DNA from: Candidatus Sulfotelmatobacter sp.
Lineage (GTDB): Bacteria > Acidobacteriota > Terriglobia > Terriglobales > Acidobacteriaceae
NCBI GenBank assembly: GCA_030037575.1
Contig: JASHRB010000334.1
Coordinates: 1-5,921, forward strand
Length of the DNA stretch: 5,921 nucleotides
Reading direction: 5' to 3'
Part shown: positions 324 to 5,921 of the stretch, one piece after another
Layout of the letters: every line of letters begins with the position of its first letter
Position numbering within the stretch: the stretch's first letter is position 1
Position numbers and translations under genes: made by a program
Notes under the pieces: generated by a model
What the model was told of the DNA's origin: nothing
Databases searched by the model: none
The model's input: only the letters and a program-made list of their open reading frames with translations

Positions 324-479
324 ATGAAGGATTCAGACATGGCTACCGGTACGTGCTCTTGCGCCGGCATGTGGCGGCCGGCTCTTTGCCGGAGGACACG
401 CACAAATGTGCGGACACCTCTGGCCGCAGAGTTCTGGGTCACCGAAACCGTCCACTTCGTCACCGGAGCATTTCGCTGA
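324..479 (+). CDS. Possible small ORF with CxC motif, 51 or 46 residues
   Basis: An ATG at 324 opens a 51-residue frame ending at TGA 477-479. An in-frame ATG at 339 gives 46 residues and has the better ribosome site: GAAGGA at 326-331, 7 nt upstream. The product from 339 starts MATGTCSCAGMWRPALCRR, with a Cys-x-Cys pair and a third Cys; the rest is basic and then mildly hydrophobic (FWVTETVHFVTGAF). I do not recognise it. It overlaps the other weak ORF of this region (353-670) in a different frame, so at most one is likely real, or both are non-coding. A Cys-containing peptide ahead of a metal-efflux operon could be a leader or metal-binding peptide, but this is speculation. Confidence 0.2.
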   Translation: MKDSDMATGTCSCAGMWRPALCRRTRTNVRTPLAAEFWVTETVHFVTGAFR

Positions 480-670
480 ACTATGAAGCCTGGAATCGGT
501 ACGTTTTGATAGCGATAGGCCTGTTCGCCCTGCTTCTGTATATCGGTTTGCTCTACGCCGGTTTGGTTGAGTTCATGTCGGGTATATCAAAAAGCGGGAA
601 GGGCAAGAAACGTTCCCAGAATCGGGTCATGACTGGTAGATTACGCAACCCCAGAAGTTCGAGACATTAA
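353..670 (+). CDS. Possible small single-helix membrane protein
   Basis: The frame is open from just after a stop at 284-286 to TAA at 668-670; the first usable start is GTG 353, giving 105 residues. The first part (to about residue 42) is Arg/His-rich and looks non-globular. The part after NYEAWNRY (about residues 50-70) is a clean hydrophobic helix (IAIGLFALLLYIGLLYAGL), followed by a positive tail (KSGKGKKR), as in a single-pass membrane protein. No start has a good ribosome site: TTG 506 would give only the helix and tail. The stop lies 20 bases before the adaptor start at 691, which would suit an operon leader gene. It may instead be a decayed gene or chance. Family unknown. Confidence 0.3.
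   Translation: MLLRRHVAAGSLPEDTHKCADTSGRRVLGHRNRPLRHRSISLNYEAWNRYVLIAIGLFALLLYIGLLYAGLVEFMSGISKSGKGKKRSQNRVMTGRLRNPRSSRH
399..412. promoter_or_regulatory. Candidate operator: CGCACA-AA-TGTGCG dyad
   Basis: The 14-bp sequence CGCACAAATGTGCG is a 6-bp inverted repeat around a 2-bp centre. It is flanked by two direct copies of GGACAC (394-399 and 412-417). Compact GC-rich dyads of this size can be operators for dimeric repressors such as ArsR- or MarR-type proteins. It lies about 280 bp upstream of the adaptor start, inside two overlapping weak ORFs, so a regulatory role is only a suggestion. Confidence 0.25.
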
Positions 671-675: not shown

Positions 676-690
676 GTGAAGAGTGCAAAG

Positions 691-1905
691 ATGAAAGATT
701 TCGAACAGGCCAACCAGAGAACTCTGGCTGCAGCTGCGACGGCCGCGATGATGGTGATCGCCACAGCTTCCTTCCTATCTGGGTGTGGCCACTCGGCCAG
801 CGCGAACACGCCGCCGGAGAGCGGTTCGGCAACCAAGCCGCCGCAGTCCGATCCCACGGTGGACTTATCGCCGAGCCAACTGAACGCAATCAAGATCGAA
901 CCCGTGGGAAGCTACGCGTTTCCCCTTGAGAAGGAAGCGGTGGGCAACATTGACTATGACGAAGACCTGTCGGTGCAGGTCTTTCCGGCCTACCAAGGCA
1001 CCATCATCAAAACCTTGGTGGAGCTTGGGGCTGAGGTTCAGAAGGACCAGCCCCTGTACACGATCAAGAGCCCCGATCTCATTCAGGCGGAATCCAACCT
1101 GATCGGCGCCGCAGCCACCTACGAACTGACCACCAAAGAGCTGGCACGCGCCAAGGATCTTTACACGACCAGCGTCGGAGTTCCCCAGCGGGAGTTGGAG
1201 CAGGCCATTTCCGATCAACAAACTGCCGAAGGTGCCCTCAAAGCCGCACGGGATGCGGTCCTCGTTTTTGGCAAGACGGATGCAGAAATCGATCAGATGA
1301 TCGCCTCTCGCAAAATCGATCCAGCGCTGGTCGTACGCAGCCCAATTCGCGGGAAGGTCACTTACAAGAACGCACAGCCGGGATTTTTCGTGCAGCCGGG
1401 GAATCTTCCGGCTCCCTACTCTGTCGCTGATGTGGCCCTGAAATGGATGCTGGCGAACGTGCCCGAAAGCGAGAGCGGATTTTTTCATCTCGGGCAGCCA
1501 GTGGCGGTCAGGACATTGGCTTACGACGGCCGCATATTCAAAGGCAAGGTCTCGAAGATCTACGAGTCGGTTGATCCCAACACGCACCGGGTCACCATCC
1601 GTTCTGACATCACGGATCCCGGGAATGACTTGCGTCCTGGCATGCTGGCCAATTTCGTGATCCGCGTCGACGCGCCGGTCGAGGCCACGGCTATACCGGC
1701 CAATGGGGTGGTGCGCGAACCCGACGGCACCATGGGCGCCTGGGTGACAACCGATCGGCAACGATTTACAGAACGAATCATCAAGGTGGGCCTGCGAAAA
1801 GATAACCGCGTTCAGATTCTGGAAGGCTTACAGCAAGGAGAGCTCGTGGTGAGTGATGGAGCCGTCTTCCTGAGCAATATGTTGCAAGCAGCCCCGAGCG
1901 ATTAG
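691..1905 (+). CDS. HME-RND periplasmic adaptor lipoprotein (CzcB/CusB type)
   Basis: This is the membrane-fusion subunit that links the inner-membrane pump to the outer-membrane channel in the periplasm. The 404-residue product (numbered from ATG 691) has a hydrophobic signal (about 12-29) and a perfect lipobox, L-S-G-C, with Cys32 as lipidation site. Next come a linker rich in Pro/Ser, the first half of the barrel-sandwich (about 93-131, GTIIKTLVELGAEVQKDQ), a short helical hairpin (about 132-195), the second half (about 213-247, VVRSPIRGKVTY), a beta-barrel (about 248-330, ending DLRPGMLANFVIRV) and a membrane-proximal domain to the end. Length is normal for the family. ATG 691 is preferred because GAAGAG (678-683) lies 7 nt upstream; an in-frame GTG at 676 would add 5 residues. 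The mature N-terminus lacks the Met cluster that CusB uses to bind Cu(I)/Ag(I). The gene ends with tandem in-frame stops (TAG 1903, TGA 1909), 42 bases before the pump gene, so the two are surely co-transcribed. Confidence 0.93.
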   Translation: MKDFEQANQRTLAAAATAAMMVIATASFLSGCGHSASANTPPESGSATKPPQSDPTVDLSPSQLNAIKIEPVGSYAFPLEKEAVGNIDYDEDLSVQVFPAYQGTIIKTLVELGAEVQKDQPLYTIKSPDLIQAESNLIGAAATYELTTKELARAKDLYTTSVGVPQRELEQAISDQQTAEGALKAARDAVLVFGKTDAEIDQMIASRKIDPALVVRSPIRGKVTYKNAQPGFFVQPGNLPAPYSVADVALKWMLANVPESESGFFHLGQPVAVRTLAYDGRIFKGKVSKIYESVDPNTHRVTIRSDITDPGNDLRPGMLANFVIRVDAPVEATAIPANGVVREPDGTMGAWVTTDRQRFTERIIKVGLRKDNRVQILEGLQQGELVVSDGAVFLSNMLQAAPSD

Positions 1906-1947: not shown

Positions 1948-4900
1948 ATGTTTAAATCTCTCATCTGGTTTTGCCTGAGCCGGCGTCCGATTGTGCTCAT
2001 GGGGTTGCTGCTGTTTGCCGGCGCTGGATTGGTCGCTTTCCAGCTGCTCAACATCGAGGCCTACCCCAATCCCACGCCCGTCATCCTCGAAATTACGGCA
2101 CAAGCGCCGGGCCTCTCCGCCGAAGAGATGGAGCGCTACTACACCCGCCCCATGGAAATCGGACTTTACACGACGCCGGGGATCGAGGTGATCCGCTCAA
2201 CCTCTTTCTACGGGCTGTCGTTCGTACGGGTCAGCTTCAAATACGGCGTGGATTATTACTTTGCCTACAGCCAGGCCGCGATCGCCCTGCAGCAAAACGT
2301 CAACCTGCCGGGCGGAGTGTCGCCGAATATCCAGGCGAACAGCTCGACCGGAGAAATCTATCGCTATCAAGTCGTCGGTCCGCCGCATTTTGGAATTACC
2401 AATCTGCGCACCGTTCAGGATTGGATCGTCGCCCGGCGTCTGCTGACCATTCCCGGCATTGCCGCCATCAACAGTTGGGGAGGTCCCACCAAAACATTCG
2501 AGGTGCAGGTGGATCCGCACAAACTGGAAGCCTACAGCGTCACGGTTCCTCAAATTCTAACCGCGCTGGGCAACGCAAATATCAACGTCGGCGGTCGCGA
2601 GATCACGGTTGGCCAGCAGTCGATCAACATTCGCGGAGTCGGCCTGATCGATGACGGCGGCAACGATGACTTAAGGGAAGGTTACAAGGTTGAGGACATC
2701 GAGAATGTCGTTCTGAGCCAGGAGAACGGCGTTCCGGTGCTGGTAAAGGATGTGGGAAAGGTTTCGGTTGGATACAGACCGAGGCTGGGCATTCTCGGAC
2801 GCGACACGCACGACGATGTTGTCGGGGCAATCGTGGTGCAGAGGCGCACCGAAAAAACCGCCGAGATGATTCCCAAGGTCGAGGCAGCCATCCGAACCTT
2901 GAATCGCGACGGAAGTCTCCCGCCGGGGGTAAAAGTTGTTCCGTTCTATGACCGCTCCTCGTTGATCGCGTTGACCACACACACGGTTCTGCACAACCTG
3001 ATTTTCGGGTGTCTGCTCGTCTTTCTCATTCAGTGGATTTTTCTCGGGGATCTGCGCAGCGCGGTGATCGTCGGGATCAACATCCCATTCGCCTTATTCT
3101 TCGCCACCATCCTTCTGGTGATCGCGGGGGAAAGCGCGAATCTGCTCTCGGTGGGCGCGGTTGACTTTGGGATCATCATCGATTCGGTTGTGATCCTGGT
3201 CGAGAACATCTTTAAAAACTTTCAGAGAACGCCGCCAGAGCGGCAGGGTTTACTCGAGCGTTTGTCCGATGGTTTCTGGGGGTCCGACCCAACCAAGACT
3301 CCCGACCCGACCACGCAAGTGCATGGTTGGACCGATCGCTTGCGCATGATTCTGATCAGCGGAGTGCAGGTGGACAAGGCAGTTTTATTCTCCACGCTGA
3401 TCACCGTGGCCGGCTTTGTACCCTTGTTCACAATGCAGGGAGTCGAGGGGCAGATTTTTGCCCCTATGGCGCGGACCTACGGCTATGCCTTAGCCGGCGC
3501 CCTGATTGCGACCTTCACCATTACGCCCGTGATCGCCTCGTTGCTGCTGCCGGAGCAGGTGAAGGAAGCCGAAACCTTGGTTGTCCGTGCGCTCCACCGG
3601 GCTTACAACCCGGCGTTAGGCTTCGCCTTGACGCATCGAGCGCTCGTCGTCGGAATCGAATTGGCCATCTCGCTTGGAACCTTTTTCCTGATCGCGCCGC
3701 GGCTGGGCAGTGAGTTTTTGCCCCACCTGGAAGAAGGCAACTTCTGGATTCGTGCCTCCATGCCAACCACGCTGTCGCTTGAAGACGGGGAAGCGGCCTC
3801 GCGAAAGATGCGCGAGATTCTTCTGCGGCATGCAGAAGTCATCACGGTGGTTTCGCAGCACGGACGCCCGGATGACGGGAGCGACGCCTCGCCATTTTCT
3901 AACGTCGAATTGTTCGCGCCGTTGAAGCCTTTCGACAAATGGCCCCGAGGCTTGACCAAAGAGAAATTAACCAACCAGATTCAAACTGAATTCACCAACG
4001 AACTGCCGGGAGTTGTGTTCAATTTTTCGCAATACATCGAGGACAACATCGAAGAGGGGATCTCCGGCGTCAAAGGAGTGAATTCAGTTAAGATCGTTGG
4101 TCCCAATCTTGAAGTTCTAACCAATCTGGCCAATCAGGTGCGCGACCAGATGAGCCAGGTGCGAGGCGTGACCGACCTGGGCATCTTCCCGGTTCTCGGC
4201 CAGCCCAACCTCAACATCAAAGTCGATCGCGAGAAGGCTGCCCGTTATGGTCTCAACTCGGGCGACGTGAATACGGTCATTCAAGCAGCCATGGGCGGGG
4301 CGGTCGCGAGTGAGGTTTTGGAAGGCGACCGGCAATTCGACCTGGTGGTTCGGTACACGCCGGATTACCGTGACAGCCTCGACAAAATTGGCAACATCAA
4401 AGTGGCCTACACCACGGCCAGCGGCGCGAACGCCTACATTCCCCTGAGCGAACTGGCCACGATTACGCTCGATACCGGGGCGTCGTGGGTTTATCACGAG
4501 AGCGTGCAGCGCTTCATCCCGGTGAAGTTCAGTGTCCGTGGCCGCGATCTCGGCGGGACGGTGGAAGAGGCGCAAGCGCGCATCGCCAAGAATGTGCAAC
4601 TTCCTTCCGGCTACCACCTGCTGTGGGCGGGCGAGTTCGGCGACCTTCAGGAAGCCAAGAAGCGACTGGAGATCATTGTGCCGATCAGCTTCGTACTGAT
4701 TGCCGGCCTGCTCTATAGCCTATTCAACAATTTCAAAGATTGCGTGCTGGCACTCGCCGGCATTCCAGATGCGATCGTCGGCGGAATTCTCGCGCTCTAC
4801 GTCTCCGGCCTCCACTTCAGCATCTCCGCCGCCATCGGCTTCGTTTCGCTGTTTGGCGTTTCTGTGATGGATGGCATCTTGATGATCACTTTCTACAACC

Positions 4901-5211
4901 AGGAACTCCATCACGGCTTCAAGCCCGTGGACGCAATGTACCGCGCCGCCTCGACTCGTATGCGTCCGCTGCTCATGACGGCGCTTTCGGCTTGCATTGG
5001 TCTGTTTCCCGCCGCGATCTCCACCGGCATCGGCAGCCAGGTGCAACGTCCGCTGGCCACGGTGATCGTGGGCGGCATGTTGCTCGGCCCGGTCATGCTC
5101 CTGCTCGCAGTACCCGCGCTGCGGCTCATTTTTCTGGGCGGGGAACACCACCTGAGCCTGCATCTGCATCACCCGCCCGCGGGCGAGTCAAAAGCAGAGG
5201 AATCCAAATGA
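1948..5211 (+). CDS. czcA: Heavy-metal efflux RND pump, CzcA family
   Basis: This inner-membrane, proton-driven exporter moves metal ions from periplasm or cytoplasm into the adaptor and outer-membrane channel. The 1087-residue product shows the full RND plan: TM1 near residues 10-33, a large periplasmic domain, TM2-TM6 (about 349-536), TM7 (about 563-582), a second periplasmic domain, and TM8-TM12 (about 909-1062). TM4 carries DFGIIIDSVVILVEN, giving D406, D412 and E419, the spacing of CzcA's essential D402, D408 and E415. FSQYIEDNIEEGISGVKG and VQRPLATVIVGG are further family blocks. One Met (M605, in MPTTL) lies near CusA's Met573, but the other two CusA metal methionines seem replaced, so classic Cu/Ag export is unlikely; the metal is not assignable. 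Oddities: a loop of about 55 residues between TM4 and TM5, D975 in TM10, and a His-rich tail (HHLSLHLHH, 1067-1075). The ATG follows a weak AAGAAG (1931-1936); no other start lies between it and the upstream stop. The last 4 bases overlap the next gene. Confidence 0.95.
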   Translation: MFKSLIWFCLSRRPIVLMGLLLFAGAGLVAFQLLNIEAYPNPTPVILEITAQAPGLSAEEMERYYTRPMEIGLYTTPGIEVIRSTSFYGLSFVRVSFKYGVDYYFAYSQAAIALQQNVNLPGGVSPNIQANSSTGEIYRYQVVGPPHFGITNLRTVQDWIVARRLLTIPGIAAINSWGGPTKTFEVQVDPHKLEAYSVTVPQILTALGNANINVGGREITVGQQSINIRGVGLIDDGGNDDLREGYKVEDIENVVLSQENGVPVLVKDVGKVSVGYRPRLGILGRDTHDDVVGAIVVQRRTEKTAEMIPKVEAAIRTLNRDGSLPPGVKVVPFYDRSSLIALTTHTVLHNLIFGCLLVFLIQWIFLGDLRSAVIVGINIPFALFFATILLVIAGESANLLSVGAVDFGIIIDSVVILVENIFKNFQRTPPERQGLLERLSDGFWGSDPTKTPDPTTQVHGWTDRLRMILISGVQVDKAVLFSTLITVAGFVPLFTMQGVEGQIFAPMARTYGYALAGALIATFTITPVIASLLLPEQVKEAETLVVRALHRAYNPALGFALTHRALVVGIELAISLGTFFLIAPRLGSEFLPHLEEGNFWIRASMPTTLSLEDGEAASRKMREILLRHAEVITVVSQHGRPDDGSDASPFSNVELFAPLKPFDKWPRGLTKEKLTNQIQTEFTNELPGVVFNFSQYIEDNIEEGISGVKGVNSVKIVGPNLEVLTNLANQVRDQMSQVRGVTDLGIFPVLGQPNLNIKVDREKAARYGLNSGDVNTVIQAAMGGAVASEVLEGDRQFDLVVRYTPDYRDSLDKIGNIKVAYTTASGANAYIPLSELATITLDTGASWVYHESVQRFIPVKFSVRGRDLGGTVEEAQARIAKNVQLPSGYHLLWAGEFGDLQEAKKRLEIIVPISFVLIAGLLYSLFNNFKDCVLALAGIPDAIVGGILALYVSGLHFSISAAIGFVSLFGVSVMDGILMITFYNQELHHGFKPVDAMYRAASTRMRPLLMTALSACIGLFPAAISTGIGSQVQRPLATVIVGGMLLGPVMLLLAVPALRLIFLGGEHHLSLHLHHPPAGESKAEESK
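5196..5201 (+). promoter_or_regulatory. Shine-Dalgarno AGAGGA for the accessory gene
   Basis: AGAGGA lies inside the end of the pump gene, 6 nt before the ATG at 5208. It fixes the start of the unknown secreted protein and, with the ATGA overlap of stop and start codons, argues for translational coupling to the pump. Confidence 0.7.
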
Positions 5212-5780
5212 GGAAGGCACGGGTTTTGGGGCCGATGATTTTGTGGGCCGTCCTGGTCCATGGCGCAAGTTTCACGAGCCGGTCGGATCAGTCAGCGGTA
5301 CAAACATCCTCACCGAGCGACAAAAGGTCGGCGACCAACAGTTCGCCAGACGGCAGCAAAGACACGCAGGCTGGTGGCCAAAAGGATCAGACCGGCAAAT
5401 ACGGGGAAGAACACCAGGCGAGTTTCGCCGCTGTAAAAAAAGGCACACCCAAATTCCACCCCGCCGCCAGCCACGCGAAACCAGCTGCCAGCCGTCAGCA
5501 ACGTGCAGATAAGACGCCCACCGCCAACAATCTTGGGACGAAAACGCCCCGAACTGCTCTGGATGCTCATCCAACTGGCTCCGCTATGCCCGCTCAGCTT
5601 CGAAACAAACCTCTCCCCCATCCCAACCGGACCGTTCCCCCGTCCACCATGGCTTTAAACGGACAGCGGTTTAGCAATTCCCGCTATTCCGGCGCGCACA
5701 TGGCAAGCAGCGGAGGCGCGGCAAACTCTCGGCGGGGCACAGCAGCGATTAACGGAAGTGACATGAAGCGAAAACCTTGA
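5208..5780 (+). CDS. Unknown secreted basic low-complexity protein between pump and channel genes
   Basis: I do not recognise this 190-residue protein. It starts MRKARVLGPMILWAVLVHGA, a good signal peptide (basic start, hydrophobic core, likely cut near residues 19-20), so the mature part is probably periplasmic. The rest is rich in Ser, Ala, Pro, Thr, Gly, Asn, Lys and Arg, without hydrophobic core, Cys or further membrane segment, and is probably disordered. It has 14 Lys and 14 Arg against 8 Asp and 2 Glu, hence strongly basic, plus 7 His and 6 Met. The motif T-x-A-[LI]-N-G appears twice near the end (147-152 and 178-183), and the C-terminus is SDMKRKP. The gene starts inside the pump's stop codon (ATGA) with a good ribosome site and ends 9 bases before the channel gene, so it belongs to the operon. 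A role as metal-binding or assembly accessory (loosely like disordered SilE, or CusF by position only) is inference. The frame runs open upstream inside the pump gene, but that part is a shadow. Confidence 0.75.
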   Translation: MRKARVLGPMILWAVLVHGASFTSRSDQSAVQTSSPSDKRSATNSSPDGSKDTQAGGQKDQTGKYGEEHQASFAAVKKGTPKFHPAASHAKPAASRQQRADKTPTANNLGTKTPRTALDAHPTGSAMPAQLRNKPLPHPNRTVPPSTMALNGQRFSNSRYSGAHMASSGGAANSRRGTAAINGSDMKRKP

Positions 5781-5789
5781 ATTGGGGTT

Positions 5790-5921
5790 ATGACTCTTAT
5801 TCGCAAAACACGCGTCATTCATATGGTTGCGAGTCTCATCGTCATCTTGGCGTTGCTGATTACCGCAGGTTGTGCAGTCGGTCCGAACTTCAAAAGGCCA
5901 ACTGCGCCGAATGTTCCCGGT
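5790..5921 (+). CDS. Outer-membrane efflux lipoprotein, NodT/CzcC type (partial N-terminus)
   Basis: Only the first 44 residues are present; the frame is open at the right edge. A basic start (MTLIRKTR) is followed by a hydrophobic segment (about 12-25) and the lipobox-like TAGC with Cys28, then AVGPNFKRP. The block Gly-Cys-x-Val-Gly-Pro-Asn-[FY]-x-x-Pro is the hallmark of the N-terminus of outer-membrane factors of the NodT/OprM/CusC kind, the TolC-like channels that complete RND exporters. The -3 residue of the lipobox is Thr rather than Leu, a little unusual. The gene starts 9 bases after the preceding stop, with GGGG (5784-5787) close to the ATG as a weak ribosome site. An in-frame ATG at codon 12 (5823) would shorten the signal and remove its positive charges, so the first ATG is preferred. 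Confidence 0.88.
   Translation, partial: MTLIRKTRVIHMVASLIVILALLITAGCAVGPNFKRPTAPNVPG

What the first reader, a model, noticed from the sequence alone, without database searches (positions are those of the whole stretch)
5208..5780. Unrecognised secreted basic protein embedded in an HME-RND operon
Seen: a 190-residue protein with signal peptide, strongly basic, low-complexity, with 7 His and 6 Met, coupled by an ATGA overlap to the pump gene and 9 bases before the outer-membrane channel gene. Known: some metal RND systems carry small periplasmic helpers (CusF, SilE), but those are far smaller or have clear Met/His motifs, and this one matches neither. Inference: it is a dedicated accessory of this exporter family, perhaps a metal sponge, an assembly or peptidoglycan/anionic-surface tether, and may be an undescribed family.
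Basis: partly seen in the sequence, partly recalled or inferred. Interest (0 to 1): 0.7.

Follow-up and report, generated by a model that had tools for sequence, protein, structure and literature searches.

The report
Disordered fourth gene in efflux operons
Many Acidobacteriota with one kind of predicted metal-efflux pump carry, wedged between the pump gene and the outer-membrane channel gene, an undescribed small protein that is predicted to be exported and floppy, whose best-kept part is its last 35 or so residues, and that likely helps hold or assemble the channel.

Summary
Window 5208-5780 encodes 190 residues with a signal-like N-terminus; it is very basic, with 7 His and 6 Met, overlaps the pump stop by ATGA, and ends 9 bases before a channel (OMF) gene. 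It belongs to an undescribed family. Relatives sit between a CusA/CzcA-type pump and an OMF in 23 of 23 loci read out, spanning 8 genera and 3 families of one class of Acidobacteriota; in all 23 the start overlaps the pump stop by four bases. A tail-only profile gave 11 strong hits in 250 genomes, all at this place; 7 were rows of the profile, 4 were new. Three orphan pump paralogues without OMF lack it. Length varies (116-201 aa). The last ~35 residues (HRGxNPAVxGG...TGAINGxxMxRKP; in the window a derived form ending GTAAINGSDMKRKP) are held by selection on protein: mean pN/pS 0.29 against 0.65 in the middle. No Pfam, NCBIfam or credible PDB relative was found, and AlphaFold gives no fold. 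Metal-sponge and arrest-peptide readings fit poorly. Best reading, untested: a secreted disordered cationic strap whose tail docks on the tripartite complex, most likely the OMF.

The parts
5208..5780 (+). CDS of the secreted basic protein (190 aa), start overlapping the pump stop (ATGA)
   Evidence: relatives
5208..5267 (+). N-terminal signal-like segment (about residues 1-20; predicted helix 8-18)
   Evidence: sequence; AlphaFold helix 8-18; no dedicated signal-peptide program was run
5268..5651 (+). variable, basic, predicted disordered middle (residues 21-148)
   Evidence: mean pN/pS 0.65 over 21 pairs; low pLDDT
5652..5777 (+). conserved C-terminal tail (residues 149-190), ending GTAAINGSDMKRKP
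   Evidence: mean pN/pS 0.29; alignments A1, A5, A6
1948..5211 (+). CusA/CzcA-type RND pump gene
   Evidence: TIGR00914 840.7 bits; ACR_tran PF00873; best solved relative ZneA
676..1905 (+). periplasmic adaptor (membrane fusion protein) gene, start codon uncertain
   Evidence: HlyD_D23; RND_mfp TIGR01730 121.7 bits, cut-off 94.9
5790..5921 (+). start of the outer-membrane channel gene (runs off the window), lipobox-like TAGCAVGP
   Evidence: full-length relative in L064

Best explanation
The protein is the fourth gene of a predicted metal-type RND efflux operon in one class of Acidobacteriota, lying between pump and channel genes in all 23 loci read, and it likely works as an exported, disordered, positively charged strap whose conserved last ~35 residues would dock onto the tripartite pump, most likely its outer-membrane channel, to help place or hold it. 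Shown by sequence: four-base coupling to the pump in 23 of 23, OMF gene directly after it, absence beside three orphan pump paralogues, protein-level conservation of the tail, faster change and length change of the basic middle. Predicted: export by the N-terminal signal, disorder. Inferred and untested: that the tail binds a partner, that this partner is the OMF rather than adaptor or pump, and that the basic middle holds to peptidoglycan or another anionic envelope surface.
For: Gene order pump-SP-OMF and 4-base overlap with the pump stop in 23 of 23 loci. A tail-only profile gave 11 hits at E <= 4.6e-11 in 250 class genomes, 11 of 11 at this place; 7 of these were rows of the profile, the 4 new ones (G835:C391, G802:C377, G823:C457, G864:C120) are 4 of 4. 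The next hit is 2.2e-4; five of the eight best weaker hits were looked at and have no pump, adaptor or channel of this clade nearby. Pump copies of >= 77% identity with a readable 3' neighbour: 18 of 22 carry it; of the 4 without, 3 have no matching OMF in the 1.8-6.3 kb read, and the one of these whose upstream side was read has no matching adaptor either. Tail under protein-level constraint (mean pN/pS 0.29 against 0.65, with pS 0.61 and 0.56). All 23 are basic (computed pI of the mature part 10.6-12.0, net charge +9 to +23). AlphaFold on two branches: mean pLDDT 51.8 and 54.5, little beyond the signal helix. Precedent for a small OMF partner: YbjP, whose flexible linker and polar contacts hold TolC (PMC13082787, abstract and sections 6 and 12 read).
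Against: No binding partner was tested and no complex was modelled. G555 has pump and OMF without the protein, so it is not indispensable. At least one of the three lone pumps has lost the adaptor as well as the OMF, so partnership with the adaptor or with the whole complex fits equally well. The OMF is itself a predicted lipoprotein in 22 of 23 loci, so it does not need a YbjP-type lipid anchor. The window's own branch has lost the HRGxNPAV half of the motif. In the other large branch a stretch of the middle is also kept among close relatives (consensus HPRSRASLTAANRPKQLPN...), so the body is not free everywhere.
Confidence: 0.4

Rival explanations
1. Same accessory, other partner: the tail docks on the adaptor or on the periplasmic part of the pump and regulates or assembles it, not the OMF.
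For: The gene overlaps the pump by four bases in 23 of 23 loci, tighter than its gap to the OMF (4-15 nt in 21, 36 nt in 1, no fitting ATG found in 1). Three pumps without OMF also lack it, and one of them lacks the adaptor too.
Against: Beside the protein the pump stays 63-93% identical to the window's (22 of the 23, G601 not measured) where the protein is only 21-53% identical; orphan pumps of 82-85% identity do without it.
Confidence: 0.25
2. Metal sponge or chaperone in the style of SilE or CusF that buffers the exported ion in the periplasm.
For: Small predicted periplasmic protein in a CusA/CzcA-type operon, predicted disordered like SilE (PMC5008109, passages read); 7 His and 6 Met.
Against: 0 HxxM and 0 MxxH in the window protein; HxxM in 0 of 23 and MxxH in 4 of 23 loci; Met 0-5 and His 2-8 per mature protein, Cys in 1 of 23 loci and 29 of 173 database relatives. 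The M five from the end is I, V, F or another residue in 8 of 23, and the H of HRG is absent from the window branch. Strong positive charge disfavours cation binding (inference).
Confidence: 0.1
3. Regulatory nascent chain: a secreted protein whose conserved tail stalls the ribosome and so controls the next gene (SecM/ApdP-like).
For: Anatomy fits several published search rules: N-terminal export signal, more than 40 residues after it, C-terminal sequence conserved among homologues, immediately upstream of another gene (PMC7897499, passages read). The conserved tail is no longer than the exit tunnel could hold (recalled). The final Pro is in 17 of 23.
Against: The last residues vary (RKP 11, RRP 4, HKP 2, six others once each, of 23), whereas the best-kept site is a Gly eight from the end in the window (23 of 23). 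No RAPP-type end. RNA at the junction shows no marked structure in 6 loci (z -1.57 to +1.67). The channel start lies 4-15 nt after the stop in 21 of 22 loci where it was found, so a stalled ribosome would cover it (inference). The downstream gene is not a sec or yidC gene.
Confidence: 0.1
4. A non-specific cationic envelope protein that coats peptidoglycan or LPS and is only co-transcribed with the pump.
For: Low complexity, high charge, variable body.
Against: Would not explain a conserved tail or the restriction to this operon.
Confidence: 0.1

Closest known systems
SilE (periplasmic silver sponge of sil operons)
   Same: Exported, disordered small protein in an HME-RND locus (disorder shown for SilE, only predicted here).
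   Different: SilE has repeated His/Met motifs MxxH...HxxM (PMC5008109, passages read). The window protein has none, is strongly basic, and has a conserved tail.
CusF (periplasmic copper chaperone of cus operons)
   Same: Small extra periplasmic gene in an HME-RND operon.
   Different: CusF is a folded domain that binds Cu through Met, His and Trp (recalled). No Pfam family matched the window protein and no fold is predicted.
YbjP, lipoprotein partner of TolC
   Same: A small envelope protein that partners an RND-pump channel (shown for YbjP, proposed here); YbjP uses a flexible linker and polar contacts (PMC13082787).
   Different: YbjP is a lipoprotein with a globular domain (DUF3828) and serves a non-lipidated TolC. 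This one has no Cys, no predicted fold, and sits beside an OMF that is itself predicted to be lipidated.
SecM / ApcA / ApdA / ApdP arrest peptides
   Same: Export signal or TM segment, hydrophilic body, conserved C-terminus, upstream gene of a pair (PMC7897499, passages read).
   Different: Downstream gene is an OMF, the end residues vary, there is no marked junction structure, and the channel start would lie under a stalled ribosome.

Membership tests
Tripartite HME-RND operon (CusA/CzcA type) | pump passes the CusA/CzcA model | tested here: met
   TIGR00914 840.7 bits, cut-off 701.45
Tripartite HME-RND operon (CusA/CzcA type) | adaptor and OMF genes adjacent | tested here: met
   RND_mfp above cut-off; OMF start at 5790
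Tripartite HME-RND operon (CusA/CzcA type) | exports a metal ion | not testable with these tools
   no assay; of the three CusA Met sites (places recalled) about one aligns with Met by eye, so copper/silver is not supported and the cargo is open
SilE | repeated MxxH / HxxM metal motifs | tested here: not met
   0 in the window protein; HxxM in 0 of 23, MxxH in 4 of 23
SilE | intrinsic disorder of the free protein | tested here: inconclusive
   AlphaFold mean pLDDT 51.8 is consistent with disorder, not proof
CusF | matches a known CusF domain model | tested here: not met
   0 Pfam families for the window protein, 0 NCBIfam, at E <= 0.001
YbjP (DUF3828) | lipid-modified Cys after the signal | tested here: not met
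   no Cys in the window protein; Cys in 1 of 23 mature relatives
YbjP (DUF3828) | DUF3828 domain | tested here: not met
   not among the Pfam matches
Sec/YidC-related arrest peptide | N-terminal export signal, body over 40 aa, conserved C-terminus | tested here: met
   (signal predicted only)
Sec/YidC-related arrest peptide | encoded upstream of a localisation-machinery gene | tested here: not met
   next gene is an OMF
Sec/YidC-related arrest peptide | ribosome stalling by the tail | not testable with these tools
   indirect signs against:

The most novel reading that the evidence does not exclude
A new class of RND-pump subunit: an exported, fold-less, cationic strap, translated in lock-step with pump and channel, that uses a ~35-residue C-terminal docking tail to capture the outer-membrane channel or the adaptor-channel joint, so that a four-gene, not three-gene, efflux machine is the rule in these Acidobacteriota.
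Probability: 0.35. Interest if true: 0.7.

Novelty: new variant of a known kind. Interest (0 to 1): 0.5.

Why it matters
Tripartite RND pumps are usually described as three proteins plus, in some metal systems, a metal-binding helper. Here a fourth gene without metal motifs or predicted fold is locked into the operon across 8 genera and 3 families, and its best-kept part is a short tail. If the tail docks on the channel or adaptor, it would join YbjP as a small RND-channel partner, and it would be a peptide-sized tool for studying how channels are recruited. The family has at least several hundred sequence clusters and no name in the libraries searched here.

Tried and rejected
Metal sponge: rejected as leading idea for lack of motifs and of conserved His/Met. 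Arrest peptide: taken seriously because of the anatomy; junction folding gave z-scores of 0.16, 1.67, 1.45, 0.06, -0.04, -1.57 for the 6 loci given (of 23), the end residues vary, and the channel start is too close. DNA- or RNA-level conservation of the tail: rejected, because pS in the tail (0.61) is no lower than in the middle (0.56) while pN falls by half; pS is near saturation for many of the 21 pairs, so the ratio is rough. Tail as a domain shared with other proteins: not found. Besides the 11 strong hits there are only weak ones (2.2e-4 and worse, up to the 0.05 limit), many with stops inside; five of the eight best of them (G189, G769, G496, G868, G851) were looked at and look like chance or shadow frames. 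Spread outside the class: a tail search of 247 evenly drawn phylum genomes, which include the window's own class, found the window genome and one weak hit of that kind, G189; the A1 profile in 396 phylum genomes found only the window genome. That sampling is thin and does not prove absence. Pfam at E <= 10 over 39 relatives gave only weak unrelated names (best 0.0036, New_glue, 5 of 39). PDB profile search: one hit, E 1.5, a ribosomal protein. Structure search was not run, because both models are low-confidence. Literature: no paper in the library holds both Sulfotelmatobacter and efflux or all of Acidobacteria, CzcA, outer membrane efflux, hypothetical protein; two searches listed 7 and 3 papers, seen as listings only; (arrest peptides) only PMC7897499 was opened, only PMC13082787, only PMC5008109. 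The library is open-access only, so novelty in print is not proven.

Pump copies left out of the 18-of-22 count (10 of 32 at >= 77% identity): G458:C381 (broken pump), G006, G036:C94, G016:C82, G636, G835:C147, G864:C20, G835:C619, G823:C102, G952 (contig edge or not followed). In some searches only two candidates per genome were scored, so further copies may exist. Left out of the database count: P0077 and P0109 (ends that look frameshifted) and P0177-P0179 (short or weak).

Full report
What is there. The window (G000:C153) is a contig of a genome placed with Candidatus Sulfotelmatobacter, Acidobacteriota (phylum recalled): of six named records that encode the same protein, five bear that name and one is an Acidobacteriaceae record, and contigs of the same lengths turn up among the genomes listed as the window's genus. 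It holds an adaptor gene (676-1905), a CusA/CzcA-type pump (1948-5211), the gene in question (5208-5780) and the first 44 codons of an outer-membrane channel gene, OMF (from 5790). I call the protein SP below.

Relatives. A protein search with the window protein gave 38 clusters at E <= 1 among 261 candidates. They align over 98-100% of the query and share a nearly fixed end, RGTAxIxGxxxKRKP; the last P is F in one. With this profile 8 of 45 genomes of the genus have a match; with a second profile G029 and G031 are added. Their pumps are 88% and 84% identical to the window's, and their SP is a more distant form, in G031 with the tail RHRGPNPAVVGG...NTGAINGTRMHRKP. A search with the G031 form gave 345 clusters at E <= 1 among 450 candidates, 120 of them listed, so the window protein is one branch of a larger family. 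A last search with a 19-member profile gave 67 of 5043 candidates. Neither Pfam nor NCBIfam knows the window protein; 39 relatives gave only weak, unrelated Pfam names, and the PDB profile search nothing credible.

Place in the genome. Following the pump through the family (300 genomes) and the class (399 genomes), and the tail through the class (250 genomes), gave, with the genus loci, 23 loci with a complete SP: 9 in the window's genus, 3 in other genera of its family, 11 in two other families of the class; 8 genera in all. A 24th (G010) is cut by a contig end. In 23 of 23 the SP start overlaps the pump stop by four bases (ATGA in 22, GTGA in one). In 22 of 23 an ATG-started OMF with a CxVGP lipobox-like site follows after 4-15 nt (21 loci) or 36 nt (one); the 23rd (G826) has the OMF by homology. 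The tail search gave 11 hits at E <= 4.6e-11, 11 of 11 in this place. Seven of these were rows of the profile; the four that were not (G835:C391, G802:C377, G823:C457, G864:C120) are the fair test and are 4 of 4. The next best hit is 2.2e-4, and five of the eight best weak hits, when looked at, had no pump, adaptor or channel of this clade nearby.

Where it is missing. Of 32 pump matches at >= 77% identity, 22 had a readable 3' neighbour: 18 with SP, 4 without. G555 has the OMF directly after the pump. G841:C22, G829:C5 and G802:C446 have neither SP nor a matching OMF in the 6.3, 2.0 and 1.8 kb read; G841:C22 also lacks a matching adaptor in the 3.1 kb upstream. G841, G829 and G802 each carry a second pump copy or pump fragment that does have SP and OMF. 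After pumps at about 50% identity (G743, G922) and below (G834, G453, G456, G033, G275, a second G630 pump) no such gene was seen in the stretch translated behind the pump, which was only 200-400 nt for the last five.

Shape and constraint. Lengths run from 116 to 201 aa, computed pI of the mature part from 10.6 to 12.0, net charge from +9 to +23; Cys in 1 of 23. Over 7 loci of the window branch (21 pairs), mean pN/pS is 0.71 in the signal, 0.65 in the middle and 0.29 in the last 42 codons, with pS alike in middle and tail (0.56, 0.61), so selection acts on the amino acids of the tail. In the other large branch part of the middle is kept too among closer relatives. Across the 23 loci the 50% consensus of the end is N.RHRG.NPAV.GG.....RG.TGAING..M.RKP; only the Gly of ING is in all 23, while the final Pro is in 17. 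AlphaFold with 39-row alignments gives mean pLDDT 51.8 (window) and 54.5 (other branch), a signal helix, and in the window model two three-residue strands.

How it most likely works. Shown: operon lock-in, tight coupling, basic variable body, protein-level constraint on the tail. Predicted: export and disorder. Inferred: a disordered protein with one short conserved piece usually works by docking that piece on a folded partner; the partner should be in the envelope and belong to this complex. I favour the OMF because the OMF follows the protein at once in all 23 loci and three lone pumps lack both; but adaptor or whole complex would fit almost as well, and I give the OMF version 0.4. YbjP on TolC shows that a channel can have such a partner (PMC13082787; abstract and sections 6 and 12 read), though YbjP is a lipoprotein with a domain and is not required for efflux under standard laboratory conditions.

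What it is not, as far as tested. Not a SilE-type sponge by motif (SilE motifs from PMC5008109, passages). Not a CusF by family model. Not a typical arrest peptide, although its anatomy meets several of the published search rules (PMC7897499, passages): junction RNA is unremarkable in the 6 loci folded, end residues vary, and the next start codon is too near.

Limits. The genomes are mostly fragmented; several pumps end at contig edges. The 23 loci are not independent (9 in one genus, 6 in another). pS is near saturation for many pairs. Cargo is unproven. No signal-peptide program was available. The paper library is open-access only, and only the searches named support the statement that I found no description.

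Noticed in passing
window about 476-670 (+), inside ORF 353-670: A small single-TM protein core ([V/L]NYEAWNRYVLxAIGLFGxLLYxGLLYAG) is kept just upstream of the adaptor gene in the window and about seven other operons; one relative has a stop just before it and one has stops after it, so the gene is probably short and starts near that core. A possible further small subunit.
   Followed up: partly
L097 (G841:C22), L104 (G829:C5), L107 (G802:C446): Lone pump paralogues, 82-85% identical to the window pump and ending ..QAG, without SP or matching OMF (and, in the one case read upstream, without a matching adaptor); the same genomes hold a second pump copy or fragment with SP and OMF.
   Followed up: partly
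L052 3378-6929 (G458:C381): A second pump copy whose 3' end is replaced by unrelated sequence, next to other genes: a broken or rearranged copy in a genome that also has an intact one.
   Followed up: no
L072 (G630:C155), L098 (G826:C200): Pump reading frames interrupted (frame change in G630, in-frame TAA in G826) while SP and OMF stay readable; could be assembly error or decay.
   Followed up: no
window 5143-5178: The pump's C-terminal end in the window is rich in His (EHHLSLHLHHPP); this stretch varies strongly between the loci.
   Followed up: no
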